64,000 nucleotides of DNA from positions 1,550,001 through 1,614,000 of the forward strand of contig NZ_CP151273.1 of the NCBI RefSeq assembly GCF_038237375.1, given 5' to 3'. Source of the DNA: Alcaligenes sp. SDU_A2 (GTDB taxonomy: Bacteria > Pseudomonadota > Gammaproteobacteria > Burkholderiales > Burkholderiaceae_B). The translations under genes were made by a program, and so were the position numbers. The notes beneath the pieces were generated by a model. That model did not search any database. It was given only the letters and a program-made list of their open reading frames with translations, and was not told where the DNA came from. Positions 30,093-50,413 of this stretch are shown one piece after another. The first letter of the stretch is position 1. Each line of letters begins with the position of its first letter.

Positions 30093-30127
30093 AAAGAAAC
30101 CGGCCCTTGTGGCCGGTTTCTTTTTGT
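30093..30127 (+). terminator. Intrinsic terminator of rpoD
   Basis: AAAGAAACCGGCC and GGCCGGTTTCTTT form a 13-bp stem around the loop CTTGT (30106-30110), and the 3' arm runs into a T-run. This marks the end of the rpsU-dnaG-rpoD block. Confidence 0.95.
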
Positions 30128-30420
30128 TCTCTTGAAGAGTTCCAAGCGCCAATTTACTCAGTCGGTGACATGCTGGCTTTTCGAAGACGCCATTGAACGC
30201 GCAGCAGGCTCGGACAGCGCACCGACAAGCCATCCGACCCCCCCTTTCGAGCGTGCTGCGCCTTGAACGGTTCAAAACACCAATGACATAGCCATACCCA
30301 ACAGAACATTGAGCGTATGGCTGAAATCTTGCATGGCGTACGCCGATGTCCCGCCGTTTGGGCCAAGCACAGCGGTGCTGTTTTCCTACGAAGGAACCCC
30401 CGAAGTTTCTCGTAGAACTG
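30126..30420. repeat. Intergenic repeat element, copy A (short, diverged)
   Basis: This non-coding stretch is homologous to copy B at 49834-50413. Four blocks align in order: 30146-30215 with 49862-49931 (about three quarters identical by eye), from 30226 with from 50092 (about 90 percent, one-base gap), from 30293 with from 50176, and 30389-30419 with 50375-50405. Copy A lacks two stretches of roughly 110-160 bp present in B. An inverted repeat remains at 30200-30212 (CGCAGCAGGCTCG) and 30248-30260 (CGAGCGTGCTGCG), 12 of 13 paired. The left end abuts the rpoD terminator. No conserved ORF spans both copies. Confidence 0.8.
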
Positions 30421-30446
30421 TTTTTTTTGTGCTGGCCCCGCCACGC

Positions 30447-30504
30447 CCAGAGATTTTTTTTGCAGGCGCAGTAATCCAGAGGTTTTTTTCGCAGGCTCAA
30501 CATG
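30447..30504 (+). repeat. Two tandem imperfect 29-bp repeats with poly-T cores
   Basis: Two adjacent units (30447-30475 and 30476-30504) share the pattern CCAGAG, one base, seven or eight T, then GCAGGC(G/T)CA. A further eight-T run occurs just before them (30421-30428). They lie between repeat copy A and a terminator-like stem, in a gene-free region. Confidence 0.6.
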
Positions 30505-30508
30505 CGTG

Positions 30509-30574
30509 AACGCTGGCTTAACGGCCAGGCCGGGCCGGTTTTCTAGCGCTGAGCAGGCCAGCGTTTATTTTTTT
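30509..30574 (+). terminator. Terminator-like stem with long loop
   Basis: AACGCTGGC (30509-30517) pairs perfectly with GCCAGCGTT (30557-30565) and is followed by TATTTTTTTG. The 39-nt loop contains GGCCAGGCCGGGCCGG, which can also fold. No gene precedes it within 400 bp on this strand, so any transcript it ends would be non-coding or rpoD readthrough. Confidence 0.5.
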
Positions 30575-30866
30575 GATGATTCGATCCCGTTTTTTTATTG
30601 ACGGCCGCTTGCGTTTGGAAAATTTCACGCACCTTGTGCTATTTTTCGACATGTTTTCAGCTGAGTGAAGTAGGCGGGCGTCTGCGATACGTCGTTCTGT
30701 CGGCTTTGCTCATTGTTCAACGGCTGGTACGTGGGTTTTGCATTCAAACGGCTTGCCTGCTGCCCGAATCGATAAAGATCCTGGATGGGTTTGTCCGGGG
30801 CCGGGTCGCCGCCTTTCGCACTTTTTACATGAAGCCAACCATTTCTGAGCATAGGGAGCCAGGGGC
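30575..30866. other. Gene-free leader of the two-component cluster
   Basis: About 290 bp before the first histidine kinase. I see no convincing ORF, hairpin or repeat here. A GGAG ribosome-binding site (AGGGAGCCAGGGGC) directly precedes the kinase ATG. The promoter of the cluster probably lies here but no clear hexamer pair was found. Confidence 0.4.
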
Positions 30867-32141
30867 ATGATTGCGACCAGCTCTGTGACGTATCGCATTC
30901 AACTGGCCATGAGTCTTGCCCTGACTTTTGTGGTCTTGGTATTGGGGGCAGGCTCCTATCTGGCTTTTGGCTACCTGAAAGACAATGTCCTTAACGAGCA
31001 CTTGAACGAAGTCGTCCAGCAGTTGGAGACGGTCAAGCCGGACGCCAGCGGTGCCTTGTCATTGGACCAGCGACATCGCCATCTCGCCTGGTTTTTGGCG
31101 ACCGGGGAGCAAGGGGCGAACGACGTGCCGGCCGAATTTAGCGCGCTGACCGCGGGAACCCACGAGTTGAACTGGCAGCAGGAACAGTGGCGTGTGCGGG
31201 TGTTAGATCGCGAGGACGGGCGCATTATTACGGCGGCGACCTCCGAGTCTTTCCGGCAGCGTCAGACCGAGTTCGGCCTGCTGATTCTGGCCTGCATGAC
31301 CTTTTGTTTGCTGATGGTCTGGTTGACGGCCGGTCATCTGGCTGCTTTGGCATCGGGGCCTATGATACGGTTGGTGCATATGCTGAGTCAGCGCAGCGGT
31401 GAGCAGCACCAGTATCAAGTGGCCAACGATAATGAAATGGGGCGTCTGCTGGGGGCGTTTAACGTCATGCAGAGCCGCCTGGAGGAAGAGCTTTACGAAG
31501 AGCGTGAAATGGCCCTGAATCTGGGCCATGAACTGAATACGGCCTTGTGTGCCATCCGCAGCGAGGCCGAAATGTTGCTGCTGACCGGGCAGGGAGGCGG
31601 ACGCTCCCGCCTGGAGAACATCATACGGCAGGCCGACATTGCCGCCGCTGGCTTGCAGAGCGCACAGAACCTGGCGTCCATAGGGCGCTCTCATAAGCAG
31701 GAATGCTGTCTGTCTCGTTACGTGGATGATGCCTGGGGGTCCTTGCCGACAGGCGCGGGCAAGACTTTGCCGCATTTCCGTAACGAAGTGCCCGAATCAC
31801 TGCGCTTGAATCTGGACCCGTCGGCCCTGTTGGTGGTGATTCGTAATCTATTGCAGAATGTGGTCGATCATGCCCGGGCCAGCGATGTCGTCGTCAGTGC
31901 GCCTACGCCGACCACATTGATGTTCAAGGATAATGGGCAGGGCATTGCTGCCGACCGGCTTGAGCGCCTGTTCGAGCGTCATTTCCATCAAGGAGCTCGC
32001 TCTTCGCCGCAGACCGGCCGACGTGGTCTGGGCATGGATATTGTGCGTCAGATCTGCCTCTATCATGGCTGGACCTTGCGTGTGCAATCCGATGTGCAGG
32101 GGGCGCAGCGTGGCACCCGGTTCTATCTGGAGCTGGAATAG
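30867..32141 (+). CDS. Sensor histidine kinase (first of two around one regulator)
   Basis: A 424-residue membrane kinase. Transmembrane helices at about 12-34 and 137-156 enclose a periplasmic sensor of roughly 100 residues without a family I recognise. A HAMP-like linker follows, then the H-box LGHELNTALCAIRSE (His221), the N-box NLLQNVVDHA (Asn331), G1 DNGQGIAA, F-box LFERHF and G2 RRGLGMDIVR. All kinase motifs are present. It lies 169 bp before an OmpR-type regulator, and a second kinase follows that regulator. The signal is unknown. Confidence 0.9.
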   Translation: MIATSSVTYRIQLAMSLALTFVVLVLGAGSYLAFGYLKDNVLNEHLNEVVQQLETVKPDASGALSLDQRHRHLAWFLATGEQGANDVPAEFSALTAGTHELNWQQEQWRVRVLDREDGRIITAATSESFRQRQTEFGLLILACMTFCLLMVWLTAGHLAALASGPMIRLVHMLSQRSGEQHQYQVANDNEMGRLLGAFNVMQSRLEEELYEEREMALNLGHELNTALCAIRSEAEMLLLTGQGGGRSRLENIIRQADIAAAGLQSAQNLASIGRSHKQECCLSRYVDDAWGSLPTGAGKTLPHFRNEVPESLRLNLDPSALLVVIRNLLQNVVDHARASDVVVSAPTPTTLMFKDNGQGIAADRLERLFERHFHQGARSSPQTGRRGLGMDIVRQICLYHGWTLRVQSDVQGAQRGTRFYLELE

Positions 32142-32310
32142 CGCGGGCAAGGCTTGCGGAACCGATATTCACGCGGATTTTACGCCCCTGGCGTTACAGT
32201 GCCGTCGTCTGGGACCATGCGCATTGACCGATGCGCCTTTCAGAGCGACCCCATCTTGCCCGGCGTATCCGGCCGGGCCGACTCCCCCCTTGCGAAAAAT
32301 AGATCAAGCC

Positions 32311-33012
32311 ATGCGCGTACTGATAGTCGAAAATGACACGACCATTGCCGAGAACCTGTATACCTACCTGGAGCTGAAAGGCTTTGTGGTGGACGCCGCT
32401 TACGATGGCAATGGGGCTCTGGGCTTATTGCAGGACCTGGACTTTGACGCCATGATTCTGGATCTGGGCCTGCCGGGCCTGGATGGTTTCGGTGTTTTGC
32501 AGGCGCTGCGCAAGTCCAGCCGCACGCCCATACCGGTGTTGGTGCTGACCGCGCGCAGCCAGCTCGAGAGCAAGCTGACGGCGTTCGATCTGGGGGCCGA
32601 CGATTATTTGATCAAACCGTTTGCGCTGGCCGAGGTCGAGGCGCGTTTGCGTGCTTTGTTGCGGCGTGGGCCTTCGCAAGTGTTGCATGGAGTGTTGCGC
32701 TGGGGCGAACTGGAATACAACCTGGATACGGCGCTGGTCAGTGTCGCCGGACAGAACTTGCATCTGAGCTTTAAGACGCGTCAGGTGCTGGAGGCTTTGC
32801 TGCGCGAGCCAGGGGCCATCATTACCCGTCGTTCGCTGGAAAAGACGCTCTGGCCGGAAGGGGCACCGTCTGCCGAGGCCTTGCGCAGTCAGATTCATTT
32901 GCTGCGCCGTGCGCTGGCCGAGGCCGGAGCAGGCAATATCGAAACACTTCCCGGGCTGGGCTGGCGCCTGGAACAGGAAGCCGAGGATGTGCCGGGGGCC
33001 GGGCGGGCTTGA
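32311..33012 (+). CDS. OmpR/PhoB-family response regulator
   Basis: A 233-residue DNA-binding regulator. The receiver domain (MRVLIVENDTTIAENL) has the phospho-acceptor Asp51 in MILDLGLPGLDGF, Thr80 in VLVLTAR and Lys102 in YLIKPF. The C-terminal winged helix contains LSFKTRQVLEALLREPGAI and ends QIHLLRRAL...TLPGLGWRLE. The start is the ATG at 32311, because the receiver homology begins there. It lies between two histidine kinases; the second starts 4 bp after its stop, so at least these two share a transcript. Target genes are not evident. Confidence 0.92.
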   Translation: MRVLIVENDTTIAENLYTYLELKGFVVDAAYDGNGALGLLQDLDFDAMILDLGLPGLDGFGVLQALRKSSRTPIPVLVLTARSQLESKLTAFDLGADDYLIKPFALAEVEARLRALLRRGPSQVLHGVLRWGELEYNLDTALVSVAGQNLHLSFKTRQVLEALLREPGAIITRRSLEKTLWPEGAPSAEALRSQIHLLRRALAEAGAGNIETLPGLGWRLEQEAEDVPGAGRA

Positions 33013-33015
33013 GTC

Positions 33016-34269
33016 ATGAGCGCGCTGAATCTGCGGGTATCCTGGGCCGCCACCTTGATTGCGGCTGTATTGGCTGTGATTCTGAGTGCCGTAGCGTATG
33101 TCACTTTCGCCAAAATGGAGCGCGATCTGGTCCATGCCACATTGCTGTCCGAAGCCGAGCAGTCTGCCGTGGGGCAGACTGCCGGCATGCAGCTTGAGCG
33201 TTACTGGTTTGCAAACGGGCAGCCCTTGACCGACTTACCTGCATTTGCGCAGGTGGATACGCCGGGCCTGCATACAAAAGCCGGTCCGGATGGTAATTGG
33301 TTTGTGTTTCGACTGGACCGGGCCGATGGTCGGATGTATGTGCTGCATCCGGCGCAGGTGCATGAACGTCGTGTCCACGACTTTGGCGTGGCGTTGGGGC
33401 TGGTGGGAACGCTGGCAGTGGTGCTGGTGTTTTTCTTGTCGCATCGGGTGGCGCGGGTTGCGGTGGCACCTGTGCGTGCCTTGGCGGCGCAGTTGGAGCG
33501 TTGGGCACCTGCGGGCAGCAGTCAGGGTGGCCAGCGCGGCCTGGGCGATGAAGCCCGCCTTAGGCAAGCGTTCAGTCGCTTGCAGGGACAGGTCGAAGAA
33601 TTGCTGATTCACGAACGCGAGTATGCCGCCCGACTGGGGCATGAGTTGCGCACCGGCCTGGCGGCCATACGCAGCGATTGCGAGTTATTGCAGTTGCAGC
33701 TGCCGCAAGGACCTGTGCAGCAGCGTCTGCAGCGCATGAAGATGCAGGCCGATCAAGTCTGCGCCAGTCTGGACCGGGCTGAAAGCCAGGGATATTCCAC
33801 GCGGCAGCCTAAGCAGGAGTTATTGCTGCGGGAATGGGTAGAGCAGAACTGGCAATCGGTATCCTTGCTGGAGCCGCGCAGTCAGCAGCTTGCCTGGATC
33901 AATGCCGTACCGCCGGATGTCGTCAGAACGCTGGATGTGTATGCCTTGTCCATGCTGCTGCGCATTTTGATGCGCAATGCCGTCGATCATGCCGCGCCTT
34001 GTCAGTTGCGTGCAGATTGGGTGGGGACATCGGTGCTGGAGCTGGCCGATACCGGTCCGGGTGTGGCTCCCGAGGAACAGGTCTTGATTTTCGAGCGCCA
34101 CTTTAGTTGCGGGCGGCAATTGCCTGACGATGCCGACGGGCAGACACAGCGCGGCAAAGGCTTGGCCCTGGCCCGCCAGATCGCGCTGGCACAGGGCTGG
34201 AGCCTGACCGTGCAGCCGGGTCCGGATGGCACAGGCTGCGTGTTCAGGCTGGATCTGAGTCCTGCTTAG
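33016..34269 (+). CDS. Sensor histidine kinase (second of two around one regulator)
   Basis: A 417-residue kinase with the same layout as the kinase upstream of the regulator: helices at about 10-32 and 123-142, and a 90-residue periplasmic domain with FVFRLDRADGRMYVLHP. The H-box is LGHELRTGLAAIRSD (His209), the N-box NAVDHA, G1 DTGPGV, F-box FERHF and G2 GKGLALARQI. The motif wording resembles the first kinase, suggesting duplication followed by divergence of the sensor. It is separated from the regulator by 3 bp, and its end overlaps guaD on the other strand by 3 bp. Confidence 0.9.
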   Translation: MSALNLRVSWAATLIAAVLAVILSAVAYVTFAKMERDLVHATLLSEAEQSAVGQTAGMQLERYWFANGQPLTDLPAFAQVDTPGLHTKAGPDGNWFVFRLDRADGRMYVLHPAQVHERRVHDFGVALGLVGTLAVVLVFFLSHRVARVAVAPVRALAAQLERWAPAGSSQGGQRGLGDEARLRQAFSRLQGQVEELLIHEREYAARLGHELRTGLAAIRSDCELLQLQLPQGPVQQRLQRMKMQADQVCASLDRAESQGYSTRQPKQELLLREWVEQNWQSVSLLEPRSQQLAWINAVPPDVVRTLDVYALSMLLRILMRNAVDHAAPCQLRADWVGTSVLELADTGPGVAPEEQVLIFERHFSCGRQLPDDADGQTQRGKGLALARQIALAQGWSLTVQPGPDGTGCVFRLDLSPA

Positions 34270-35591
34270 GCCGCCCGGCGATGCACACAGCGCCCGGCAC
34301 TGTAGCTGGCGCTGATATTGCGGTCGTCTCCCAGCATGGCCAGGACAAACAACTGTTCTTCCAATGAATCTAGCTGGCTGCTGCGGCGTGCCATCAGTGG
34401 TGTGGCGGCCGGATCAACGATGATGAAATCGGCCTCTGCGCCGGGGGCCAGCGTGCCGATTTGGCCTTGCATGTCCAGGGCGCGCGCCGCTCCTTCGGTC
34501 GCCAGGTAGAACATGCTGGTTGCAGTCAGGTGACAGCCGCCCAGTCGGGCCACTTTATGGGCTTCGTTCATGGTGCGCAGCATGGAGAAAGACGTGCCCC
34601 CACCCACATCGGTGGCCAAGGTGTGGTGTACGCCGCTTTGTCGCATGGCCTGGAAATCGAACAGGCCGCTGGCCAGAAACAGATTGGAGGTGGGGCAATG
34701 CGCAGCCACGCTGCCGGTGTCGCGCATGCGTGCCCGGTCTGTCTCGTCCAGCCAGATGCTGTGTCCAAAGATGGCGCGTGGACGCAGCAGGCCGACGCTG
34801 TCGTATACATCCAGGTAACTGCGGTTGTGGGGAAACAGTTCGCTGACCCACTGAATTTCGTCTTTGTTCTCGGCCACGTGGGTCTGCACGAAAACATCGG
34901 GGTAGGCGCGTGCCAGTTCGCCGCAGGCCGCTAATTGCGCAGGTGTGGAAGTAGGTGCAAAGCGCGGAGTCAGGGCATAGAGCTGGCGGCCTTTGCCATG
35001 CCAGCGCCGGATCAGATCTTCGGACTCGCGCGCGCCCGACTCGGCCGTGTCTTGCAGATAGTCCGGGCAGTGGCGGTCCATCATGACTTTGCCGGCGATC
35101 ATGCGCACATTACGCGAGTGGCTTTCCTGGAAGAAGGCATCAACAGACTGGGGGTGCACACTGCCGTAGACCAAGGCCGTGGTCGTGCCGTTGCGCAGCA
35201 GCTCGTCCAGAAAGACACCGGCTACTTCGCGTGCATGGTCACTATCGCCAAATCGGCCTTCGGCTGGGAATGTATAGGTTTCCAGCCAGGGCAGCAGGCC
35301 AGAGGCGGGAGAGGCGATGATGTCGGTCTGCGGGAAATGCAGGTGCGTGTCGATCAGGCCGGGCATGATCAGTTTGCCCGGCAGATGAGTCACAGGTACC
35401 GATGCGGGCAGCTTTCCGGCCAATTCGGCGTAGTCTGCGCAGGCATCGATCCGTCCCTGGGCATTGACCAGCAGCAGGCCGTCGCTGTGATAGCGCACCG
35501 CCTGGGACGGGTCTTCCAGCGTCGCCGGATCGGCCACAAAATAGAGCAATTGAGCGCGATAGGCGCAGGCGGTCGAATCGGGGGAAATCAT
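34266..35591 (-). CDS. guaD: Guanine deaminase
   Basis: A zinc amidohydrolase that converts guanine to xanthine. The 441 residues contain the metal motif DTHLHFPQTD, LPWLETYTFPAE, the HVAENKDEIQW segment, IFGHSIWLDETD, and TDVGGGTSFSML with the late metal-binding Asp. This is a complete GuaD. It is last in the operon xdhA-xdhB-xdhC-guaD, 27 bp after xdhC, so guanine is deaminated to xanthine, which XdhAB oxidises to urate. The stop overlaps the kinase stop on the opposite strand. Confidence 0.95.
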   Translation of the reverse strand: MISPDSTACAYRAQLLYFVADPATLEDPSQAVRYHSDGLLLVNAQGRIDACADYAELAGKLPASVPVTHLPGKLIMPGLIDTHLHFPQTDIIASPASGLLPWLETYTFPAEGRFGDSDHAREVAGVFLDELLRNGTTTALVYGSVHPQSVDAFFQESHSRNVRMIAGKVMMDRHCPDYLQDTAESGARESEDLIRRWHGKGRQLYALTPRFAPTSTPAQLAACGELARAYPDVFVQTHVAENKDEIQWVSELFPHNRSYLDVYDSVGLLRPRAIFGHSIWLDETDRARMRDTGSVAAHCPTSNLFLASGLFDFQAMRQSGVHHTLATDVGGGTSFSMLRTMNEAHKVARLGGCHLTATSMFYLATEGAARALDMQGQIGTLAPGAEADFIIVDPAATPLMARRSSQLDSLEEQLFVLAMLGDDRNISASYSAGRCVHRRAA

Positions 35592-35618
35592 GGTTGTCCT
35601 TAAAATAAAACAGGCGGC

Positions 35619-36584
35619 TCAGCGGCGCAGCTGGCCGAGCCGGTAGGCCTGGGCAAGCAGTTCGGCGGCCACGGCGACGGCGATGATTGCGGGCTCTTTG
35701 CCGGTAATGCCGGATGCGCCGATCGGGCAAACCAGCTCTTGAATACGGGCACTGGGCAGACCGCGTTGTTGTAAGCGCCGCTCAAACTGGCGGCGCTTGG
35801 TCTGCGAACCGATCAGGCCGACGTAGGCGGTATCGGTGCGTCGCAGAATTTGCTGGCACAGCTTCAGATCCAGGGCGTGGCTGTGAGTCATGACCAGAAA
35901 GTAGCTGCCGGGCGCGGCTTGTTCGATCAGGGCATCGGGAATGTCCGTGGCCTCGATGCTGACATTATCGGGCCAGCGATTCGGAAATGCCGCTTCCCGT
36001 TCGTCTATCCATTGCACTGTGCAAGGCAGGGTGCCCAGCACATTGATCAGGGCCTCGCCAACATGGCCTGCGCCAAACAGCAAGATGTTCAGGGGGGCGG
36101 GTGGCCAGTCCTCCAGCCATTGCGTCTGATCCGCGCGGCGTTCCAAGTGTGAGCCAGCACAGGAGTGTAACCGGATCTGCACCTGTCGTTCACCCGCCGG
36201 CAGCAAAAGGGAGCGGCGGCTGGCGGCCTGGCCAGTTTGCAGTGCTTTGTTCAGGGGTTCCAGCCAGACCAGATCAGCCGGTTCCAGCACCTCGTGCAGC
36301 AGCGTGACCGCGCCGCCGCAGCATTGACCCAGACTGGGGCCCAGCGGCAGACGCGCCAGAGACCAGGCTGGCGCATTGTCTTGCTTCAGCAGGGCGCGCG
36401 CTTGTTCGGCAGCTACCCATTCCAGATGGCCGCCTCCTATGGTCAGCCATTGCCCGGTCAAGCTGAACAGCATGGCGGTGCCGGTAGCGCGCGGGGTCGA
36501 GCCTTGCGCCTGGGCGACCGAACACAGCACCAGCCGCTCGCCGGCTTGCAGGCGGGGCAGCGCAATCCCCGGCCAGTTGTTCAT
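35619..36584 (-). CDS. xdhC: Xanthine dehydrogenase accessory protein XdhC
   Basis: Binds molybdenum cofactor, promotes its sulfuration and delivers it to XdhB. The 321 residues have the N-terminal XdhC/CoxI domain with GSTPRATGTAMLF and the C-terminal Rossmann-like domain with ILLFGAGHVGEALINVLG. The ending ICPIGASGI-like segment (VCPIGASGITGKEPAIIAVAVAAELL) is typical. The start overlaps the xdhB stop by 4 bp, so it is translated with the enzyme it serves. Confidence 0.95.
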   Translation of the reverse strand: MNNWPGIALPRLQAGERLVLCSVAQAQGSTPRATGTAMLFSLTGQWLTIGGGHLEWVAAEQARALLKQDNAPAWSLARLPLGPSLGQCCGGAVTLLHEVLEPADLVWLEPLNKALQTGQAASRRSLLLPAGERQVQIRLHSCAGSHLERRADQTQWLEDWPPAPLNILLFGAGHVGEALINVLGTLPCTVQWIDEREAAFPNRWPDNVSIEATDIPDALIEQAAPGSYFLVMTHSHALDLKLCQQILRRTDTAYVGLIGSQTKRRQFERRLQQRGLPSARIQELVCPIGASGITGKEPAIIAVAVAAELLAQAYRLGQLRR

Positions 36585-40444: not shown

Positions 40445-40472
40445 TTGTCTTGGGCGCGGACATTTGTCTGGG
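40445..40472. promoter_or_regulatory. Direct TTGTCT repeats in the xdhA/LysR divergent region
   Basis: TTGTCTTGGG (from 40445) and TTGTCTGGG (from 40464) are 19 bp apart, about two helical turns, between the divergent xdhA and LysR starts. They could be operator half-sites. This is inference from position and repetition only. Confidence 0.3.
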
Positions 40473-40518
40473 ATGATGTTTACTATTTTTCTCCCTGGTT
40501 CGCTCCGTCGCAACTGCC

Positions 40519-41505: not shown

Positions 41506-42260
41506 GTCTGCAGATCGATCTAAACTGCGATATGGGCGAGAGCTTCGGGGCGTGGACGATGGGCCACGATCAGCAGGTGATGCCTTGGGTGTCGTCGGTC
41601 AATATTGCCTGTGGTTTTCATGCCGGCGATCCGGCCACCATGCGGCGCACCGTGGCCCTGGCCCTTGAACACGGCGTGCGTATCGGCGCGCATCCCGGCT
41701 TGCCCGACCTGGTGGGGTTTGGCCGTCGGGTCATGGCAATCAGTCCCCAGGAAGCCTATGACCTTGTCGTGGTGCAGGTGGGGGCGCTGGCGGCCGTGGC
41801 GCGCTCGCAAGGCGCTGCGCTGCATCATGTCAAGGCGCATGGTGCCTTGTATAACATGGCTGCCCGCGATGCAGGGTTGGCGCAGGCCATTGCGCAGGCT
41901 GTGGCCGATGTGGATGGCAGCCTGGTTTTGTATGCCCTGGCGGGCAGTGTGCAGGCACAAATCGGCCGGCAGGCGGGCCTGGCGGTTGCCCAGGAAGTGT
42001 TTGCGGATCGCAGCTACCAGTCAGACGGCAGTCTGACGCCGCGCCAGCAGCCCGGTGCCATGATTACCGATATACAGCAATCCGTGGATCAGGTCTTGCA
42101 GATGGTGGAACAGGGGCGGGTGACGTGTCTGACGGGCGAGTCGATCGCCTTGCAGGCCGATACACTGTGTCTACATGGCGATCAGCCTGGCGCAACTGAC
42201 TTTGCCCGCCACTTGCATGCCGCTTTTCAGGAACGCGGCATACGTGTGCAGGCAGTCTGA
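41502..42260 (+). CDS. pxpA: 5-oxoprolinase subunit A (PxpA, LamB/YcsF family)
   Basis: A 252-residue protein starting MSLQIDLNCDMGESFGAW, the hallmark of the YcsF family, with NIACGFHAGDP, GAHPGLPDLVGFGRR and HHVKAHGALYN. In the known PxpABC enzyme it acts with PxpB and PxpC to hydrolyse 5-oxoproline to glutamate using ATP. Neither partner gene is next to it. The ATG overlaps the LysR stop (ATGA), making a two-gene unit. A BenE-type transporter gene converges on it with no intervening base. Confidence 0.9.
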   Translation: MSLQIDLNCDMGESFGAWTMGHDQQVMPWVSSVNIACGFHAGDPATMRRTVALALEHGVRIGAHPGLPDLVGFGRRVMAISPQEAYDLVVVQVGALAAVARSQGAALHHVKAHGALYNMAARDAGLAQAIAQAVADVDGSLVLYALAGSVQAQIGRQAGLAVAQEVFADRSYQSDGSLTPRQQPGAMITDIQQSVDQVLQMVEQGRVTCLTGESIALQADTLCLHGDQPGATDFARHLHAAFQERGIRVQAV

Positions 42261-43463: not shown

Positions 43464-43476
43464 GGCGGCGTAAGTT

Positions 43477-44259
43477 CTAGGGTTGGCCGTGCAGGTGCGC
43501 AGGCGTCTGGTGGAGGTAGCGACTGGGTGTGCTGCCTAGAATGGACTTGAATACAGCAATAAAGGCGCTGGTCGATCCGTAGCCCAGCTCTTGTGCCGTG
43601 CTTTTGACCGGCATGCCCGAGGTCAGCTTTTGCAGGGCCAGCATCATCATCAGCTGATGACGCCAGCGCCCGAAGGTCATGCCTGTGTGTTTTAGCATAT
43701 GTCGGGCCAGGGTGCGTTCGCTCATGGCAACATGGCTGGCCCATTGCGCCATGCTGATGCGCTTGTGGGGTGCCGCCAGCATCTGGCGGGCGATGTGTTG
43801 CAAGGTAGGGTCTTCAGGCAGTGGCACGTGCAATTGTCGGGCGGGCATGTCGGCCAGCGTATCCAGCAGCACCTGCACCAGACGATGCGTGGAACTGTCG
43901 GCCGGGTAGTCCCGTTCCAGGCTGCTCAGGTGCATGATCATCTCGCGCAGCATGGGGCTGATCTCCAGCGTGCAGCAGTGATCGGGCAGTGCGCCGGCCC
44001 CCGGCTCGATGAACAGAAAATGAATCAAGGCATTGGCGGCGGCATGGTTGCAGTGCCGTATGCCGCCGGGAACCCAGACGGCGCAGCCGGGCGGCACCAT
44101 CCAGTAGCCGTCGTCGGCCTGAAAGGTGACCGCGCCATGCTGGGTCATGATGAGCTGGCCCTTGCGGTGCGTGTGCAGCGGCACTTCTTCAGGGCAACCG
44201 CCTATATCTACCTTGATACTGAAGGCCGGGCAGCCGTAGGAGTCGGGGTCGAAGTTCAT
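43477..44259 (-). CDS. AraC-family regulator, NimR-like
   Basis: A 260-residue regulator with an N-terminal cupin-like domain (HTHRKGQLIMTQHGAVTFQ and VPPGCAVWVPGGIRH) and a C-terminal double HTH (ISMAQWASHVAMSERTLARH and KSTAQELGYGSTSAFIAVFK). E. coli NimR (YeaM) has the same build and lies divergent from the CynX-family exporter nimT, as here: the partner transporter starts 85 bp away on the plus strand. The benE-like gene follows in the same direction. I infer control of the divergent transporter. Confidence 0.85.
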   Translation of the reverse strand: MNFDPDSYGCPAFSIKVDIGGCPEEVPLHTHRKGQLIMTQHGAVTFQADDGYWMVPPGCAVWVPGGIRHCNHAAANALIHFLFIEPGAGALPDHCCTLEISPMLREMIMHLSSLERDYPADSSTHRLVQVLLDTLADMPARQLHVPLPEDPTLQHIARQMLAAPHKRISMAQWASHVAMSERTLARHMLKHTGMTFGRWRHQLMMMLALQKLTSGMPVKSTAQELGYGSTSAFIAVFKSILGSTPSRYLHQTPAHLHGQP

Positions 44260-44344
44260 GCTGTCTGTTTTCGGATATAAATTGGCATAATATCGTGATT
44301 ACGTCGACTGAAAAACCGGCTAGAGTGTAGGCATCCTGAAAAAC

Positions 44345-45547
44345 ATGCCCCTCTTTATGTCCCGTCTTGCTTTTTTTCTGCCGTCCCGACCGATGCTGGT
44401 TCTGCTGGGCGTTTTATTGATTGCCGCCAATCTGCGTGCGCCTGTCACGGGTATCGCCCCGCTGTTGGAATTGATTCAGGCGGATCTGTCCCTAAACGCC
44501 ACGGCGGCTGGCCTGTTGACGGCCATGCCTTTGTTTATTTTTGCCGTGGTGTCTTTGCTGTCGGCGGCGTTGGCCCGCGCCGTGGGCCTGTTCCGTTCCT
44601 TGTTTCTGGCGGCGGTGTTGATTCTGGCCGGTGTGTTGCTGCGTGTGTTGGGCGGCACTATCGCGCTGTTTCTAGGCATGGGGCTGCTGGCGATGGGAAT
44701 TGCTATTGCCAATGTTTTGCTGCCGTCCTTGGTCAAGCAGCAGTTTCCGCAGCGCATCGCCTTTGTCACCTCTTTGTATGTTCTGGTGATGGGGCTGGTG
44801 GCAGCGCTTAATTCCGCTGTTGCCGTGCCTTTGGCCGAGCTGGCGGGGCAGAGCTGGCGTTGGTCATCCCTTGCCATCGGCGTGATTGCCCTGGCCAGCG
44901 TGCTGATCTGGCTGACTCAGCTGGGGGCGGATTCTCGCCAGACACCGCCGGATTCGGCCAAGCCCGCGACTGTGTCCGGGTCGGTTTGGCGGCTGCCTCT
45001 TGCCTGGCACATTACCTTGTACATGGGCTTGAACTCGGTGGTGTATTACATGATTGCCAGCTGGTTACCGGCGATGCTGGTCAGTTACGGCTTCGATCCC
45101 GAGCAGGCCGGTCAGATACACGGCTTAATGCAGTTGTGCTCAGCGGTACCCGGTCTGGTGTTGCTGCCATTGCTCAACCGTCTGCAGGATCAGCGACCCG
45201 TGGCGTTTGCGGGTGCCGCTTTGCAGACACTGACGATGCTGGGCTTGTTGCTGTTGCCTTCGTGGTCGTTGCTTTGGTCCTTGTTGTTCGGCTTTGGCAG
45301 CGGCAGCGTATTTATTGTTGCTTTGTCTTTGATCGGCTTGCGCTCGGCCTCGGCCCAGCAGGCAGCGTCTTTGTCAGGCATGGCGCAGTGTGTCGGCTAT
45401 TTGCTGGCTGCCTGCGGGCCGCCGCTGATTGGTGCTTTGCACGATGTGTTCGGCGATTGGGCATGGGCCTTGGGCCTGTGCCTGTTGGTAACATTGGGCA
45501 TGATATGGGCTGGCGTGCTGGCCGCGCGGCCAGCACACCGTGTCTGA
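44345..45547 (+). CDS. CynX/NimT-family MFS transporter
   Basis: A 400-residue major facilitator with 12 predicted helices. The opening segment LLGVLLIAANLRAPVTGIAPLL is typical of the CynX/NimT/YycB group, which includes the E. coli 2-nitroimidazole exporter NimT and the cyanate-operon protein CynX. It is paired divergently with a NimR-like AraC regulator, reproducing the nimR-nimT layout. The natural substrate is unknown. The gene converges on the next MFS gene with an 11-bp gap and no obvious terminator. Confidence 0.87.
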   Translation: MPLFMSRLAFFLPSRPMLVLLGVLLIAANLRAPVTGIAPLLELIQADLSLNATAAGLLTAMPLFIFAVVSLLSAALARAVGLFRSLFLAAVLILAGVLLRVLGGTIALFLGMGLLAMGIAIANVLLPSLVKQQFPQRIAFVTSLYVLVMGLVAALNSAVAVPLAELAGQSWRWSSLAIGVIALASVLIWLTQLGADSRQTPPDSAKPATVSGSVWRLPLAWHITLYMGLNSVVYYMIASWLPAMLVSYGFDPEQAGQIHGLMQLCSAVPGLVLLPLLNRLQDQRPVAFAGAALQTLTMLGLLLLPSWSLLWSLLFGFGSGSVFIVALSLIGLRSASAQQAASLSGMAQCVGYLLAACGPPLIGALHDVFGDWAWALGLCLLVTLGMIWAGVLAARPAHRV

Positions 45548-45558
45548 TCGCATCGGTT

Positions 45559-46755
45559 TCAGTGTTGATGTGGCGTGGTCATGGCCAAGCGCATCGACCA
45601 GGCATGAATGCCTAATCCGCCCAGCGCCAGCAGTGCGCCCACCCAGGCGGTCGAGGTCCAGCCCAGGCCTGCCGATACGGTCAGGCCGCCCAGCCATGCG
45701 CCCAAGGCATTAGCCAGATTGAAGGCCGAATGATTCAAGGCGGCGGCCAGCGTCTGGGCGTCGCCGGCCACATCCATCAGGCGTATCTGCAAAGCCGGCC
45801 CCAAGGCGACCAATGTGCCGATCAATACGATGTTCAGCGGGCCTAGAACAGGGCTATGCGCGGTCAGCATGAACAGCAGCAGCACACCGGCGGCCCAGAT
45901 CAACACCATGCGTATGCTGCGGTCCAGATAGCGGTCGGCGTAACGCGCGCCCACCAGGTTGCCGATGATCATGCCTGCTCCGAACAAAGCCATGACGACG
46001 GGGATGGCGCTGGCCGACAGGCCCGCCAGTTCCATCAGGGTGGGTTTTACATAGCTGAATACCGAAAACATGCCGCCAAAGCCGATGGCTCCTATGCCCA
46101 GGGTCAGCCAGACTTGCTTGCGTTTCAGCGCCCCTAGCTCTCGCCAGGGGCTGGCCAGTGTGTTGGCAGGCATGAAAGGCACGAAACGTAGCACCAGAGC
46201 CATAGCCAGCACGGCGATCAGACTGACAAAGACGAATGCGGCGCGCCAGCCCAGCCATTGACCCAGGCCGGTGGCCAGCGGTACCCCGGCCAGCGTGGCG
46301 ACGGTCAAGCCCAGCATGACATAGGCGACGGCCTGGGCCCGTTTGTGTGGGGGCACCAGGCTGGCAGCCACCAACGAGGCCACGCCAAAGTAAGTGCCGT
46401 GCGGAAAACCGGCCAGAAAACGGGCCAGCAGCACGGGCAGGTACCCTGGGACCAGGACAGTGAGCAGATTGCCGGCGGCATAGGCCCCCATTAGCGCAAT
46501 CAGCAATCTGCGCCAGGGCCAGCGCGCACCGGCAACGGCCAACAGCGGAGCGCCGATGACCACGCCCAGCGCATAGGCGCTGATCAGGTGTCCGGCAGCC
46601 GGAATGTCGATGTCCAGATCGCGGGCCACATCGGGCAGCAGCCCCATGATGACGAACTCTCCGGTGCCGATGGAGAAACCGCCGACACCTAGTGCCAGCA
46701 GAGCCAGCAGAATCTGTCGGGAGGAGCGTTGTAGGCGGTTGTTGGAAGGGGGCAT
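45559..46755 (-). CDS. MFS transporter, DHA1/YdhP-AraJ type
   Basis: A 398-residue 12-helix MFS permease. The N-terminal helix with GGFSIGTGEFVIMGLLPDVARDL is characteristic of the AraJ/YdhP/YnfM-type sugar- and drug-efflux group. RFLAGFPHGTYFGVASLVAASLVPPHKRAQAVAYVMLG (split here from one segment) matches the family's helix 4-5 loop. The function is probably export of small molecules; the substrate cannot be inferred. It stands alone, transcribed toward the CynX-like gene. Confidence 0.85.
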   Translation of the reverse strand: MPPSNNRLQRSSRQILLALLALGVGGFSIGTGEFVIMGLLPDVARDLDIDIPAAGHLISAYALGVVIGAPLLAVAGARWPWRRLLIALMGAYAAGNLLTVLVPGYLPVLLARFLAGFPHGTYFGVASLVAASLVPPHKRAQAVAYVMLGLTVATLAGVPLATGLGQWLGWRAAFVFVSLIAVLAMALVLRFVPFMPANTLASPWRELGALKRKQVWLTLGIGAIGFGGMFSVFSYVKPTLMELAGLSASAIPVVMALFGAGMIIGNLVGARYADRYLDRSIRMVLIWAAGVLLLFMLTAHSPVLGPLNIVLIGTLVALGPALQIRLMDVAGDAQTLAAALNHSAFNLANALGAWLGGLTVSAGLGWTSTAWVGALLALGGLGIHAWSMRLAMTTPHQH

Positions 46756-46999
46756 GGTGCAAGCCAGAAAGGGCGACCGTACCGGGCCGCGCCGAATGAT
46801 GAAAAGCCGGTATTGTCGCGCACTCGCATCATTTGTCTCAAGGGAAAACCCTAGGTTAAATCTGATTTTATTTTCATATATGAATATTTTTTGGCAATTA
46901 AGCGTGTTTTGTACTAGGCAATACCACGGTTTTTGTTCAATGCCTAGATCATTTTATTGAATCAACTTATGCAGACACTTTTTTCTGTTTTATATAAAA

Positions 47000-47088
47000 T
47001 GCAGATGTTGGATATGCGTATATGTCCAATCATTTTCCTGTGGTAGCTTTCCCCTGGTTTCCCTTAAAGAAATCAGGGGTTTTTTTTA
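47000..47088 (+). ncRNA. Candidate small RNA ending in an intrinsic terminator
   Basis: A TATAAA -10-like box (46993-46998) would start transcription near 47005. The stretch then shows a hairpin TTGGATAT/ATGTCCAA (47008-47015 with 47022-47029) and a textbook terminator: CCCCTGGTTTC (47051-47061), GAAATCAGGGG (47069-47079), then eight T. No gene lies upstream on this strand for more than 1 kb, so the terminator appears to serve a short independent transcript of about 80 nt. The -35 is weak. No known sRNA family recognised. Confidence 0.45.
47051..47087 (+). terminator. Orphan intrinsic terminator
   Basis: An 11-bp stem with one G-U pair and a 7-nt loop, followed by TTTTTTTTATTC. It points away from no annotated plus-strand gene, which is the main evidence for a small RNA here. 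Confidence 0.85.
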
Positions 47089-47218
47089 TTCTTTTTTCTA
47101 TAATCATCAATTATCAGTGAATTGATGATCGAGCTAAAAAGCAGCTTTGATCAGGTCCGGGCGTATACTGGTGCAGGCCGGGTTTATTTGATTCAAGCAT
47201 TTTTTCAAGGCGAAAGCC

Positions 47219-47977
47219 ATGCTGACCGACCCTCTCTTCTATCTGGCCGGTGTGCCGGCCGTGCTGTTGCTGGGCATATCCAAAGGCGGATTTGGCGGTG
47301 GCCTGGGGGGCTTTAGCCTGCCTTTGCTCTTGCTGGTCATGCCGCCGATGCAGGCGGCTGCAATTATGCTGCCCTTGCTGTGTCTGGCTGACTTTACTGG
47401 CTTGAAGGCGTATTTTGGAAAGTGGGACTGGTCTAATTTGCGCATCATCCTGCCAGGAGCGGTCATTGGCACGGCATTAGGTTGGTGGACCTTCGATGTG
47501 TTTGAGTCTGCGCATATTCTGCTTTTGATCGGCGTGATTTCTGTCGGCTATGCCTGTTTGAATATCCGCCGTCGCGCAGCAGGAGCCAATCGGGCGCTAT
47601 CGAAAAACTGGCTTAAAGGCGGATTCTGGTCCACCTTGTCAGGCTTTACCAGTTTTGTTTCGCACGCCGGCGGGCCGCCCTTGCAGATCTATCTTTTGCC
47701 GCAGCGCCTGAATAAAGAAACGTATATTGCCACCACCAATATTTTTTTCTTGTTGATCAACTTAATGAAACTGCCGCCGTATTACTGGCTCGGACAGTTC
47801 AGTCCGGCCAATCTATGGCTTTGTCTGGCATTGGCTCCCTGGGTGCCGATAGGCGTTTATCTGGGGGTGTATCTGCAACGCCGGGTACAGACCGATGTTT
47901 TTTATGGTTTGTTGCAGTTCTTTCTGTTGTTGACCGGATTGTGGCTGATCTACAAGGGCTGGCAGGGCTTGTCATAA
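47219..47977 (+). CDS. TSUP-family (TauE/SafE) membrane permease
   Basis: A 252-residue protein with about 8 hydrophobic helices. LLGISKGGFGGGLGGFSLPLLLLVMPP near the N-terminus and the second-half repeat FTSFVSHAGGPPLQIYLLPQ are the paired signatures of the sulfite exporter TauE/SafE (TSUP) family, which moves sulfite, sulfoacetate or other organosulfur anions. The start is the ATG at 47219. No sulfur-metabolism genes are adjacent, so the substrate is undetermined. It is followed by a nitrilase-like gene 48 bp downstream. Confidence 0.9.
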   Translation: MLTDPLFYLAGVPAVLLLGISKGGFGGGLGGFSLPLLLLVMPPMQAAAIMLPLLCLADFTGLKAYFGKWDWSNLRIILPGAVIGTALGWWTFDVFESAHILLLIGVISVGYACLNIRRRAAGANRALSKNWLKGGFWSTLSGFTSFVSHAGGPPLQIYLLPQRLNKETYIATTNIFFLLINLMKLPPYYWLGQFSPANLWLCLALAPWVPIGVYLGVYLQRRVQTDVFYGLLQFFLLLTGLWLIYKGWQGLS

Positions 47978-48025
47978 TGGTCGCTGCGCTAGAATGCATA
48001 GGCGTCGGATCACAGGAGAAATGCC

Positions 48026-48820
48026 ATGAAAGTCGCACTGGGCCAAATGGCCGTTTCCAAGGATGTGCAGGAAAACCTGGATTGTTGCCTGAGCCTGATC
48101 GAGCAGGCCACGCGCGCCGGTGCGCAGTTGCTGGTTTTGCCCGAAGGCGTGCTGGCCCGCAACGTGGCTGATCCGGAGCTGGTGCTCAAGTCTGCCCAAG
48201 CGCTGGATGGCGATTTCGTCACGCGCCTGAGCGCTGCCACCCGGGATACCGACCTGACGGTGGTATTTTGCATCCATACGCCAGCCGGGCCGGGCAAGGT
48301 TTGGAATACGTTGGTTGTGCTGCACGACGGACAAGTGTTAGCGCACTATCACAAGCTGCATCTGTACGATGCGTTCTCGGTCAAAGAGTCGACCTATGTG
48401 CAGCCTGGCCAGGATGTGCCAGCCTTGATCGAGGTGGCCGGCCTGAAAGTCGGGCTGATGACCTGTTACGATCTGCGCTTTCCCGAACTGGCGCGGCGTT
48501 TGAGCATCGATGGTGCACAGGTGCTGCTGGCTCCGTCGGCCTGGTTGAAAGGTCCGCTCAAGGAACACCACTGGCGGGTTTTGACGACGGCGCGCGCCTT
48601 GGAAAACACGGCCTATGTGGTGGCGGTGGGCGAATGTGGAGAGCGCAATATCGGTCAGAGCCTGGTTGTGGACCCATTGGGGGTGATCGTGGCCCAGGCG
48701 GCCGAGACGCCGACTCTGTTGCTGGTGGATCTGGATAGGGAGCGGCTGGCTTATGCTCGGCGCATCCTGCCTGTGCTGGATAACCGGCGCTTTCAGACCC
48801 CGCAGTTGGCGGTATCGTAA
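48026..48820 (+). CDS. Carbon-nitrogen hydrolase (nitrilase superfamily, Nit/omega-amidase-like)
   Basis: A 264-residue hydrolase with the Glu-Lys-Cys triad visible: Glu40 in LLVLPEG, Lys110 in HYHKLHLYD, Cys147 in LMTCYDLRFPE. The superfamily cleaves amides and nitriles; this branch resembles Nit/YafV-type amidases that repair deaminated glutathione or act on omega-amides. A clean SD (AGGAG) precedes the ATG. It lies between a TSUP permease and a pirin, all on the plus strand. The exact substrate is not determined. Confidence 0.88.
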   Translation: MKVALGQMAVSKDVQENLDCCLSLIEQATRAGAQLLVLPEGVLARNVADPELVLKSAQALDGDFVTRLSAATRDTDLTVVFCIHTPAGPGKVWNTLVVLHDGQVLAHYHKLHLYDAFSVKESTYVQPGQDVPALIEVAGLKVGLMTCYDLRFPELARRLSIDGAQVLLAPSAWLKGPLKEHHWRVLTTARALENTAYVVAVGECGERNIGQSLVVDPLGVIVAQAAETPTLLLVDLDRERLAYARRILPVLDNRRFQTPQLAVS

Positions 48821-48865
48821 ATAACCTGCCTGATCGGTTCAGGACAGGTACAAGGAGATCATCGT

Positions 48866-49732
48866 ATGGTGGAACTTGTCATCAATCAGCGGCAGCACAG
48901 CATCGGTGCTTTCGAGGTCGGGCGCGTGCTCCCTTTTCGCCAGCGCCGCATGGTCGGCCCCTTCATTTTCTTTGACCGCATGGGGCCGCAGGAATTGGCC
49001 GGTCCTGTCGGTCGACATGCCGATGTGCGTCCGCATCCGCATATCGGCATTTCCACCGTGACGTATTTGTTCGAGGGCAGCATCACCCATAGGGACAGCC
49101 TGGGCGTGGAGCAGGATATTACGCCGGGAGCCCTGAACTGGATGACGGCCGGTTCGGGCATCAGTCATTCGGAGCGCTTTGATCCCATCCGCCAGCAGGG
49201 CGGGCGCATGGACGGCATACAGGCCTGGGTGGCGCTGCCGGACAACAAGGAAGAGCAGGCTCCGGCTTTTGTGCATTATTCATCCCAAAGTCTGCCTTTG
49301 ATCCACGAAGCCGGTCTGCAAGGTCGCCTGATTGCCGGTTCGGCCTTGGGCTTGACCAGTCCCGTGCATGTTGATTCGCCACTGTTTTACATCGAACTGC
49401 GTGCCCAGGCCGGACATTCCGTGCCGCTGCCTGGTGGCCACGAGGAGCGCGCCATCTATATCTGTAGCGGCGGGCTGGAGGTGGCGGGCCAGCGCTACGA
49501 GGCCGGTCAGATGCTGGTGTTTGCCCGGGGCGATGCGCCGCGTATCGTGGCGTTGCTGGATAGTCACTTGATGCTGTTGGGTGGCGAACCAGTCGGACCG
49601 CGCCACATCTGGTGGAATTTTGTGTCCTCGCGCAAGGAACGGATCGAGCAGGCCAAGGACGATTGGCAGAATGGCCGTATCGCACTGCCGCCGCAGGACG
49701 ACCAGGAATTCATTCCTTTGCCCCAGAACTAA
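48866..49732 (+). CDS. Pirin family protein
   Basis: A 288-residue bicupin. The N-terminal pirin domain shows MVGPFIFFDRMGP, the metal-ligand pattern RPHPHIGISTVTYLFEG and the following HRDSLG, then GALNWMTAGSGISHSER. A C-terminal cupin with VDSPLFYIELRAQ and a final GPRHIWWNFVSSRKERIEQAKDDW complete it. Some bacterial pirins oxidise quercetin and others modulate metabolic enzymes; the role here is open. It is followed by the large intergenic repeat (copy B). Confidence 0.92.
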   Translation: MVELVINQRQHSIGAFEVGRVLPFRQRRMVGPFIFFDRMGPQELAGPVGRHADVRPHPHIGISTVTYLFEGSITHRDSLGVEQDITPGALNWMTAGSGISHSERFDPIRQQGGRMDGIQAWVALPDNKEEQAPAFVHYSSQSLPLIHEAGLQGRLIAGSALGLTSPVHVDSPLFYIELRAQAGHSVPLPGGHEERAIYICSGGLEVAGQRYEAGQMLVFARGDAPRIVALLDSHLMLLGGEPVGPRHIWWNFVSSRKERIEQAKDDWQNGRIALPPQDDQEFIPLPQN

Positions 49733-49833
49733 GGGCGGGTGCTGCGGAAATAGCCGATCGCTTTTTCCTGTTCAGGGGGCGCACGCATTAGCGGGTTCGC
49801 GGTTGCTCAAGCACACGGGATTCTTTGACGTAC

Positions 49834-50413
49834 CTTTGTTTGGTTCTTCAAAAAATCCCGTGCGCCAATTCCTCCAGTCGATGAGGAATTGGCTTTTTGA
49901 AGACGTCGTTCAAGACGCAGCACGCTCGGACGGAGCTGATGGCTTGCCGGCGCTGCGCGCCGGTGCCCTGGTCGGGCCACATGGCCGGGCGCGTCGTTAA
50001 CTCCGGCGGGTTGCTTGTCCACCGGACAAGCAACAAGCGCCGCCGTCAAACAGAACGACGCTTGCACTCCGTCCCCGTGCCCCGCCTGCGGCAAGCCATC
50101 CGACCCGCCCCGTCCGAGCGTGCTGCGCCTTGAACGGCTCAAAACATCGATGACATCGCCCCGGCTATACATAGTCATACCCAACAGACCATTAAGCGGA
50201 TGGCTGATATCGTGTACGACGTATACGGACGTCCTGCCACTTGGGCCAAGCACAGCGGTGCCGTTCTCGCCAGGTCGGCCACAGAGGGCGAAGGACCCCG
50301 CCAAGCCGACCCGCTGTGGCCGACCTGGCGAGAACCCGAGTTTCTGTCCGTTTGGCCCAAAGGCCTGCCCATTGCGAAGGAATCCCCGAAATCTCTCGAA
50401 GAACCAAAAAAAG
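49834..50413. repeat. Intergenic repeat element, copy B (long, with terminal and nested inverted repeats)
   Basis: The ends are inverted repeats: 49834-49849 (ending TGGTTCTTC) against 50398-50413 (starting GAAGAACCA), 15 of 16 paired. Inside are a two-tier hairpin at 49845-49903 (CCAATTCCTC/GAGGAATTGG), a split inverted repeat (49916-49933 with 50110-50127, 18 bp perfect, and 49938-49949 with 50089-50100, 12 bp perfect), GTTGCTTGTCC/GGACAAGCAAC at 50010-50034, and a 22-bp perfect inverted repeat at 50263-50284/50314-50335. Copy A at 30126-30420 is a shorter relative. No transposase is encoded. It resembles a MITE-like or cruciform-forming non-autonomous element. Confidence 0.8.
50263..50335. 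repeat. 22-bp perfect inverted repeat with 29-nt loop inside copy B
   Basis: Arm 50263-50284 (starting GTTCTCGCCAGG) is the exact reverse complement of 50314-50335. It lies in a stretch missing from copy A, so it may be a separate insertion or a part lost from A. Confidence 0.85.

What the first reader, a model, noticed from the sequence alone, without database searches (positions are those of the whole stretch)
30126..50413. A two-copy, intergenic, cruciform-rich repeat family (copies at 30126-30420 and 49834-50413)
Two non-coding regions 20 kb apart share four collinear homologous blocks (about 75 to 90 percent identical by eye). Both lie directly downstream of a plus-strand gene (rpoD, pirin) in the same orientation. 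Copy B has 16-bp terminal inverted repeats (one mismatch) and nested perfect inverted repeats. Copy A lacks two internal stretches. A one-base indel in the best conserved block breaks any shared reading frame. This suggests a non-autonomous mobile element or a structured RNA family that I do not recognise.
Basis: seen in the sequence. Interest (0 to 1): 0.75.

Follow-up and report, generated by a model that had tools for sequence, protein, structure and literature searches.

The report
Jumping element carrying twin folded RNAs
The two repeats belong to a roughly 50-copy family of small non-coding jumping elements that insert mostly at gene-end signals (transcription terminators); the full-length form carries a pair of elaborately folded, back-to-back RNA-like structures that are conserved in many related bacteria and were not found in the RNA family library searched.

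Summary
Copies A and B are 2 of roughly 50 related elements in this genome: 87 end matches against 3 for the reversed control pattern. Full length is about 733 bp, non-coding, with ends GGTTCTTCG and an 8-bp target duplication. Insertion is mostly beside terminator hairpins (20 of 30 on the T-tract side, 2 of 30 on the other side); one copy splits a CRISPR spacer. It behaves as a non-autonomous transposable element; its transposase was not found.

The larger finding is inside: a ~180-nt fold with massive covariation (61 pairs, 43 with two-sided changes), 81 copies here. It occurs in 66 of 268 family, 77 of 399 order and 20 of 369 class genomes (lower bounds) and matches no Rfam family at threshold. 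Where a second fold lies nearby, the two are divergent in 29 of 30 distinct loci; flanking genes are convergent rather than divergent 25 to 5. At three ortholog sets the folds are 93-98% identical, spacers and near flanks 71-87%, so the fold looks selected, not debris. I favour an RNA acting at transcript ends; that function is inferred.

The parts
30093..30123 (+). rpoD intrinsic terminator (13-bp stem, T-tract follows), the insertion site of copy A
30126..30419 (+). Copy A: internally deleted type A element, both folds missing; right end 30399-30419 matches the end pattern with 3 mismatches; flanking 8-mers TTCTTTTT / GTTTTTTT match 6 of 8 (read)
49811..49834 (-). Inverted fragment of an element end next to the left end of copy B: sign of a second copy or rearrangement
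   Evidence: pair I3
49842..50405 (+). Copy B: type A element, left end 49842-49862, right end 50385-50405; second (slot 2) fold missing
49864..49893 (+). Terminator-like hairpin just inside the left end, reading inward; strong here (-18.4 kcal/mol over the tested segment), weaker in the other 29 copies measured (-2.4 to -13.8)
49922..50120 (-). Structured RNA-like core (fold) in slot 1, RNA-sense on the minus strand; 183.4 bits to model R1
50263..50335 (.). Empty slot 2: 26-bp inverted repeat arms (50263-50288 / 50310-50335) that flank the second fold in full-length copies
50412..50435 (-). Intrinsic terminator of the converging minus-strand ORF 50648-51355, the insertion site of copy B

Best explanation
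Copies A and B are internally deleted members of a non-autonomous transposable element (here 'type A', full length about 733 bp) that duplicates 8 bp of T- or A-rich target and lands mostly in the T-tract of intrinsic transcription terminators. SHOWN: ends, target duplication, target preference, absence of a shared ORF. INFERRED: a DDE-type transposase acting in trans, not found. The payload is a pair of the same ~180-nt fold in divergent orientation (copy B keeps one, copy A none). SHOWN: the fold is a conserved secondary structure; neighbouring folds are divergent; wobble pairs concentrate on the outward-reading strand; the fold is kept at orthologous loci; it lies more often between converging than diverging genes; no Rfam family matches at threshold. 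INFERRED: the fold works as RNA in transcripts that run through the intergenic region, one sense-oriented copy for each direction of transcription. It would act as a bidirectional transcript-end structure (3'-end stabiliser, terminator or insulator), comparable in logic to inverted REP pairs. Terminator-seeking elements bring it to new gene ends, and selection keeps some copies.
For: Element: 30 elements with both ends placed, 8-mer flanks match 6.4 of 8 against 5.57 (sd 0.146) in 10,000 within-class shuffles, none as high; mean identity 0.80 at length 8, 0.62 at 9. Hairpin at the T-tract: 25 of 30 against 15 of 30 on the other side at -8 kcal/mol, 20 against 2 at -14; mean -15.9 against -8.3. 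L015 splits a CRISPR spacer with an exact 8-bp duplication. Fold: MAFFT alignment A3, 44 sequences, 61 hand-named pairs, 92.8% of cells paired, covariation score 0.570 against 0.181 shuffled and at most 0.115 slid; RNAalifold on A2 finds two-sided changes in 31 of its 47 pairs. Wider set A6, 70 sequences: all 61 pairs with two-sided changes (fitted to the model). Strand: G-T exceeds A-C in RNA sense in all five sets counted: A3 116:37, A4 58:12, A5 50:26, A6 141:49, A7 168:40. Pairing: of 69 distinct locus clusters, 30 have an adjacent second fold, 29 divergent, 1 tandem. Place: 25 convergent, 31 tandem, 5 divergent of 61 clusters, p = 3e-4 for 25 against 5. Selection: three ortholog sets, mean fold identity 0.93-0.98, spacers 0.75-0.77, flanks within 200 bp 0.71-0.87, further out 0.83-0.90.
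Against: No transcript data. No sigma-70-like promoter was found around either copy, although read-through would not need one. Copies A and B have lost one or both folds and persist, so the fold is not needed to stay in place. 39 of 69 locus clusters show no second fold within the fetched stretch. Terminator targeting alone could explain the 3'-end location in this genome. By the loose hairpin rule half of the elements also have a hairpin on the other side, and 5 of 30 fail on the T-tract side. No transposase with these ends was found. Wobble asymmetry would also appear if single-stranded DNA of that strand were the functional form.
Confidence: 0.55

Rival explanations
1. The folds are DNA sites: each is an end recognised by an unknown mobilising enzyme as extruded single-stranded DNA, so that a divergent pair is a minimal mobile unit (as REPIN ends are) and the MITE ends in this genome are secondary.
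For: Inverted pairing in 29 of 30 distinct loci that have a second fold nearby, many copies per genome (14-81 in the 9 positive genus genomes), and packaging in two different element types in this genome.
Against: Strong conservation in place at three ortholog sets is more than a mobile end needs. No Y1 transposase match in any of 10 genus genomes; 11 of 66 fold-positive against 53 of 202 fold-negative family genomes carry one (tallied by eye). The 8-bp target duplication belongs to the outer ends, not to the folds.
Confidence: 0.25
2. Two divergent small-RNA genes expressed from a promoter region in the spacer and acting in trans.
For: Divergent layout with 5' ends facing each other; MITE-derived sRNAs are described for Coxiella (PMC10969869, passages seen).
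Against: Spacers vary from 22 to 957 nt and are among the least conserved parts at the three ortholog sets (0.75-0.77). No promoter-like site found near copies A or B.
Confidence: 0.12
3. Passive debris: a MITE whose palindromes persist by mutation pressure and gene conversion, with no function of the fold.
For: Internal deletions are common: 10 of 30 elements are near full length, lengths run from 172 to 736 bp.
Against: Two-sided changes in 43 of 61 pairs, conserved unpaired loops across genera and stronger conservation than neighbouring DNA in the three ortholog sets.
Confidence: 0.06
4. It is the known Bordetella repeat BRE (~90 bp, PMC3110155).
For: Same class of bacteria, GC-rich, intergenic, many copies; the BRE locus gives Northern-detected RNAs (abstract, passages and section 14 seen).
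Against: A tandem 82-bp repeat lies near lexA, where BRE locus 3 is reported, in one unnamed family genome (L356); model R2 finds nothing in 27 lexA loci including this one. BRE is tandem, our folds are divergent. That L356's repeat is BRE is my inference; the published sequences are in a figure I could not see.
Confidence: 0.02

Closest known systems
[quoted passage not shown]
   Same: Terminal inverted repeats, target duplication, no shared ORF, many intergenic copies.
   Different: Lands mostly in intrinsic-terminator T-tracts and carries a conserved complex fold in divergent pairs; no partner transposase identified.
REP / BIME and REPIN-RAYT (recalled)
   Same: Inverted pairs of structured units, often at gene 3' ends, many copies, RNA-level effects on 3' ends proposed for REPs.
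   Different: The unit is a ~180-nt multi-helix fold, not a short hairpin; no Y1 transposase match in 10 of 10 genus genomes.
BOX, RUP and SPRITE elements of Streptococcus pneumoniae (PMC10969869 passages; PMC3049150 seen in search listing only)
   Same: Modular intergenic repeats; SPRITE is terminator-like, and elements insert in one another.
   Different: No sequence or fold relation tested; a different phylum.
BRE of Bordetella (PMC3110155)
   Same: GC-rich betaproteobacterial intergenic repeat with RNA detected.
   Different: ~90 bp, tandem; the core model does not match the lexA loci, one of which holds an 82-bp tandem repeat.
ISL3-family IS (ends recalled as GGCTCTTC..., 8-bp duplication)
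   Same: Ends GGTTCTTCG and 8-bp duplication are similar in style; an ISL3 element of genus genome G006 begins GGCTCT where its copies start to agree.
   Different: End sequences differ beyond the first bases; this genome has one 23-bit PF01610 match, of a kind seen in all ten genus genomes.

Membership tests
bacterial MITE | terminal inverted repeats shared by copies | tested here: met
   87 ends for pattern GGTTCTTCGNNNAATTYCGGG with up to 3 mismatches, 3 for the reversed control
bacterial MITE | target-site duplication | tested here: met
   8 bp, 0 of 10,000 shuffles as high; 7 of 30 perfect, 16 of 30 with at least 7 of 8
bacterial MITE | no transposase gene inside | tested here: met
   long frames of 10 near full-length copies fall in different places, many 1-2 nt indels
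bacterial MITE | partner IS with the same ends | tested here: inconclusive
   only ISL3 (PF01610) and Y1 (PF01797) families were sought; ISL3 ends in G006 differ
REPIN-RAYT | Y1 (HUH) transposase in the same genome | tested here: not met
   0 of 10 genus genomes, 9 of which carry the fold
REPIN-RAYT | two short REP hairpins in inverted order | tested here: not met
   inverted order yes, but the unit is a ~180-nt fold with 61 pairs
any Rfam 15 family | covariance-model match at the core | tested here: not met
   window at gathering threshold: 0. 27 core-bearing loci at E up to 1: 11 matches; one, a tRNA, reaches its gathering score. Two others overlap a core: mir-4776 in L221 (E 0.82) and isrG in L224 on the opposite strand (E 0.043). 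Strongest beside a core: mir-2756 on both strands of L216, about 53 nt away (E 6e-6, 40.6 bits against a gathering score of 61)
BRE (PMC3110155) | same sequence as the ~90-bp repeat, locus beside lexA | tested here: not met
   0 R2 matches in 27 lexA loci; species unnamed, so indirect
BIME (inverted REP pairs) | binding of gyrase or IHF, protection of upstream mRNA | not testable with these tools
   needs wet experiments

The most novel reading that the evidence does not exclude
A new, widespread class of structured RNA that exists as divergent twin folds at bacterial gene ends, spread by terminator-seeking mobile elements and then retained by selection: a mobile, bidirectional 3'-end control device of Burkholderiales and some other Gammaproteobacteria (GTDB sense).
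Probability: 0.45. Interest if true: 0.88.

Novelty: new variant of a known kind. Interest (0 to 1): 0.74.

Why it matters
Structured RNAs with this much covariation usually do something specific. One with 81 copies in this genome, found in 40 of 159 sampled genera of an order and without an Rfam match, would be a large blind spot in RNA annotation. The divergent-pair rule and conservation in place give a direct test of whether mobile elements supply working transcript-end structures. The elements of this genome (two end types, both carrying the pair) are natural insertions next to many genes, so effects on 3' ends could be read from RNA-seq.

Tried and rejected
Tried and led nowhere: Rfam for the window and 27 fold-bearing loci. 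Plasmid search with copy B (none) and with two distant folds (only one search gave hits: its Variovorax hit holds a fold pair, its Xanthomonas hit has no R2 match). ISL3 as driver: strong matches in G006 (5) and G003 (1) and a fragment in G001, but ends differ and this genome has only a weak match. REP/RAYT as driver: rejected. BRE: rejected indirectly. Ten literature searches listed no paper that I could recognise as describing this fold; five returned 0 papers with restrictive terms, and of the 106 papers only 15 were listed and none opened. This is weak evidence of absence.

Limits and rows dropped: genome counts are lower bounds, because only 9 or 6 candidates per genome were scored. Weak order- and class-level matches (about 33-75 bits) were checked together by structure counts and by pairing, not one by one. 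My first pair and gene-direction counts (44 of 45 pairs; 39 convergent to 6 divergent of 86) held the same or orthologous loci several times; one search merges 96 loci into 69 clusters and gives the numbers used here. Of those 69, 8 had no gene direction and 5 disagreed internally. Gene direction is the longest open frame on each side, not a gene call. The loci are best matches per genome, not a random sample. The 30 elements are those whose two ends I could pair among 87 end matches; three ends (in L005, L138, L139) were set by hand, two apparently one base off, which lowers the match; L015 (right end damaged) was left out although its duplication is exact. The -14 kcal/mol threshold was chosen after seeing the values. 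The three ortholog sets are those evident, not all. The nine stretches were fetched but used only in the BLAST.
Full report
Observation. Their inverted repeats are real, and copy B folds far better than shuffles (z -12.9; copy A z -1.5). Searching the whole genome (3.65 Mb, one contig) changed the scale: copy B gives 192 BLAST pieces, and the end pattern gives 87 matches against 3 for its reversed control, which I group by eye into roughly 50 elements.

The element. Ten near full-length copies are 725-736 bp, 74-92% identical to each other, with many 1-2 nt indels and no frame open in the same place throughout; of the 30 elements measured, lengths run from 172 to 736 bp, so internal deletion is common. 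The ends are GGTTCTTCGAAGAATTCC... on the left and an imperfect inverse on the right. For 30 elements with both ends placed, the flanking 8-mers match at 6.4 of 8 positions on average, against 5.57 (sd 0.146) when right flanks are dealt out anew among elements of the same T-rich or A-rich class; 0 of 10,000 shuffles reach the observed value, and mean identity is highest at length 8 (0.80) and drops at 9 (0.62). A hairpin of at least -8 kcal/mol lies against the T-tract in 25 of 30 and on the other side in 15 of 30; at -14 kcal/mol, a threshold chosen afterwards, it is 20 against 2. Mean energies are -15.9 and -8.3. The element thus lands mostly in intrinsic terminators, in both orientations (17 against 13). 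Copy A is at the rpoD terminator. Copy B is at the terminator of the converging ORF 50648-51355, and its left end is rearranged. One copy left out of the 30, L015, splits a spacer of a CRISPR array: its flanks carry an exact 8-bp duplication (CTTTTCTG), and without element and duplication the spacer would be 32 nt, like the next one (lengths counted by eye). Neither copy A nor copy B has a BLAST match in 80 rpoD loci of other species, which reach up to 1 kb past rpoD, and no fold is found there.

The fold. In full-length copies two slots each hold a ~180-nt module, the second inverted relative to the first; copy B keeps slot 1 only, copy A neither. The module is shared with other species of the genus in different outer surroundings. 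MAFFT alignments (A2, 47 sequences; A3, 44 sequences) show a multi-branched structure: P1, P2, a long variable P4, P5 with two conserved internal loops, and a short hairpin P3. RNAalifold on A2 finds 47 pairs, 31 with two-sided changes. With 61 pairs named by hand on A3, 92.8% of cells pair, 43 pairs show changes on both sides, and the covariation score is 0.570 against 0.181 for shuffles and at most 0.115 for slid structures. A-C mismatches exceed G-T pairs on the strand first aligned (127 to 44); in the opposite sense G-T exceeds A-C in all five sets counted (116:37, 58:12, 50:26, 141:49, 168:40). The reverse strand of copy B is therefore the likelier structured strand, window 49922-50120 minus, 183.4 bits, MFE -126.2 kcal/mol, z -6.6.

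Spread. A covariance model (R1) finds 81 matches in this genome and 14-37 in 8 of the 9 other genus genomes; one genus genome has none. In the family 66 of 268 genomes and 23 of 43 genera match. A second model (R2) matches 77 of 399 genomes (40 of 159 genera) of the order and 20 of 369 of the class. Only a few candidates per genome were scored, so these are lower bounds; the far matches are weak (about 33-75 bits) but keep the conserved loop letters, the helices (all 61 pairs with two-sided changes, though on a model-fitted alignment) and the pairing rule. A named example is an unannotated divergent pair on the Variovorax paradoxus VAI-C replicon CP063167.1. Rfam gives no match at gathering score for the core in the window or in 27 loci; 11 matches at E up to 1 include one tRNA, two weak overlaps with a core and a stronger hairpin match (mir-2756, E 6e-6, below its gathering score) beside the core of L216.

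Pairing and place. 96 loci (best matches per genome, not a random sample) form 69 distinct clusters once shared flanks are merged. 30 clusters have a second fold in the fetched stretch: 29 divergent (RNA senses facing outward), 1 tandem, 0 convergent; 39 have none there. Before merging it was 44 of 45, with spacers from 22 to 957 nt. In this genome the list, read by eye, gives 25 divergent pairs and one tandem, but these belong to a few element families. The genes around 61 clusters are convergent in 25, tandem in 31 and divergent in 5 cases; 25 against 5 has p = 3e-4. Gene direction was taken from the longest open frame.

Selection. Three loci occupied in three or four species each allow comparison in place. 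Mean identities of left and right folds are 0.98/0.97, 0.95/0.94 and 0.93/0.96, spacers 0.77, 0.77, 0.75, flanks within 200 bp 0.71-0.87, and sequence further out, which should include genes, 0.83-0.90. The folds are better conserved than what surrounds them, which passive repeats would not be.

Two carriers. Seven other elements of this genome (L020-L026) have different ends (CAGRCTGCTGACAAACCC and its inverse) but carry the same divergent fold pair. By reading, the same terminator hairpin stands on both sides of five of them, half of it on one side of L022, and a degraded form at L020, as if the whole hairpin had been duplicated; a T-tract follows on the right flank in 4 of 7, and 7 of 7 contain a terminator-like hairpin near the left end. 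Two element types in one genome thus favour terminators and carry the pair.

Mechanism. Shown: a mobile non-autonomous element with an 8-bp target duplication, mostly in terminators; a conserved fold with strand bias; divergent pairing; a bias to shared 3' ends; conservation in place. Inferred: the fold acts as RNA in transcripts crossing the intergenic region. Whichever way transcription runs, one fold of the pair is in sense, which would explain the divergent rule and the preference for 3' ends. The main rival is a DNA role as recognition ends; RAYT-type mobilisation is unlikely because none of 10 genus genomes has a Y1 transposase match. The transposase is unknown; ISL3 was tested as a candidate and not supported.

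Known or new. As a mobile element it is a new variant of MITE. The fold has no Rfam match at threshold, and ten paper searches listed nothing recognisable as it; they are weak evidence, detailed in Tried and rejected. The named betaproteobacterial repeat BRE (PMC3110155; abstract, passages and section 14 seen) is different by arrangement and by a failed model match at lexA loci, where it should be.

Noticed in passing
L015 (G000:C1:2960024-2963466), element about 2961532-2962245: A type A element sits inside a 32-nt spacer of a CRISPR array with repeats GGTTCATCCCCGCTGACGCGGGGAACAC-like (type I-E by recalled repeat), with an exact 8-bp duplication CTTTTCTG.
   Followed up: partly
L020-L026 (G000, seven loci; nearest to the window G000:C1:1629831-1630392, about 16 kb past its end): A second element type with ends CAGRCTGCTGACAAACCC, a terminator hairpin on both sides of most copies and a terminator-like hairpin near its left end; it carries the same divergent fold pair. 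Long duplications of this kind recall the IS1202 group (recalled, not tested).
   Followed up: partly
window 49811-49865: Two inverted copies of an element end abut at the left of copy B (83% over 24 nt), as if two elements inserted at one terminator.
   Followed up: partly
L002 and L016 against L190/L031/L192 and L205/L196: At two intergenic regions this genome holds a type A element near sequence that also borders a fold pair in other species: vertical descent with new ends, or a shared hot spot.
   Followed up: partly
L243, L311, L315, L241, L246, L306 outward flanks: In distant species the folds are followed outward by an A/T-rich hairpin of the form GGTTACTTTCTTTGGCGAAGCAAAGAAAGTAAC; possibly another carrier's ends or part of the functional unit.
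   Followed up: no
L221:1694-2650: Two small ORFs that look like a ParE-type toxin-antitoxin pair lie between two divergent folds 957 nt apart (name from reading, not searched).
   Followed up: no
L356:872-1031: 82-bp tandem repeat near lexA, possibly the published BRE repeat.
   Followed up: partly
L216:1754-1845: A hairpin beside the fold matches Rfam mir-2756 on both strands at E 6e-6 but below the gathering score; probably a chance palindrome.
   Followed up: no
window 30867-34269: Two sensor-kinase-like ORFs flank a response-regulator-like ORF downstream of copy A (names from reading, not searched).
   Followed up: no
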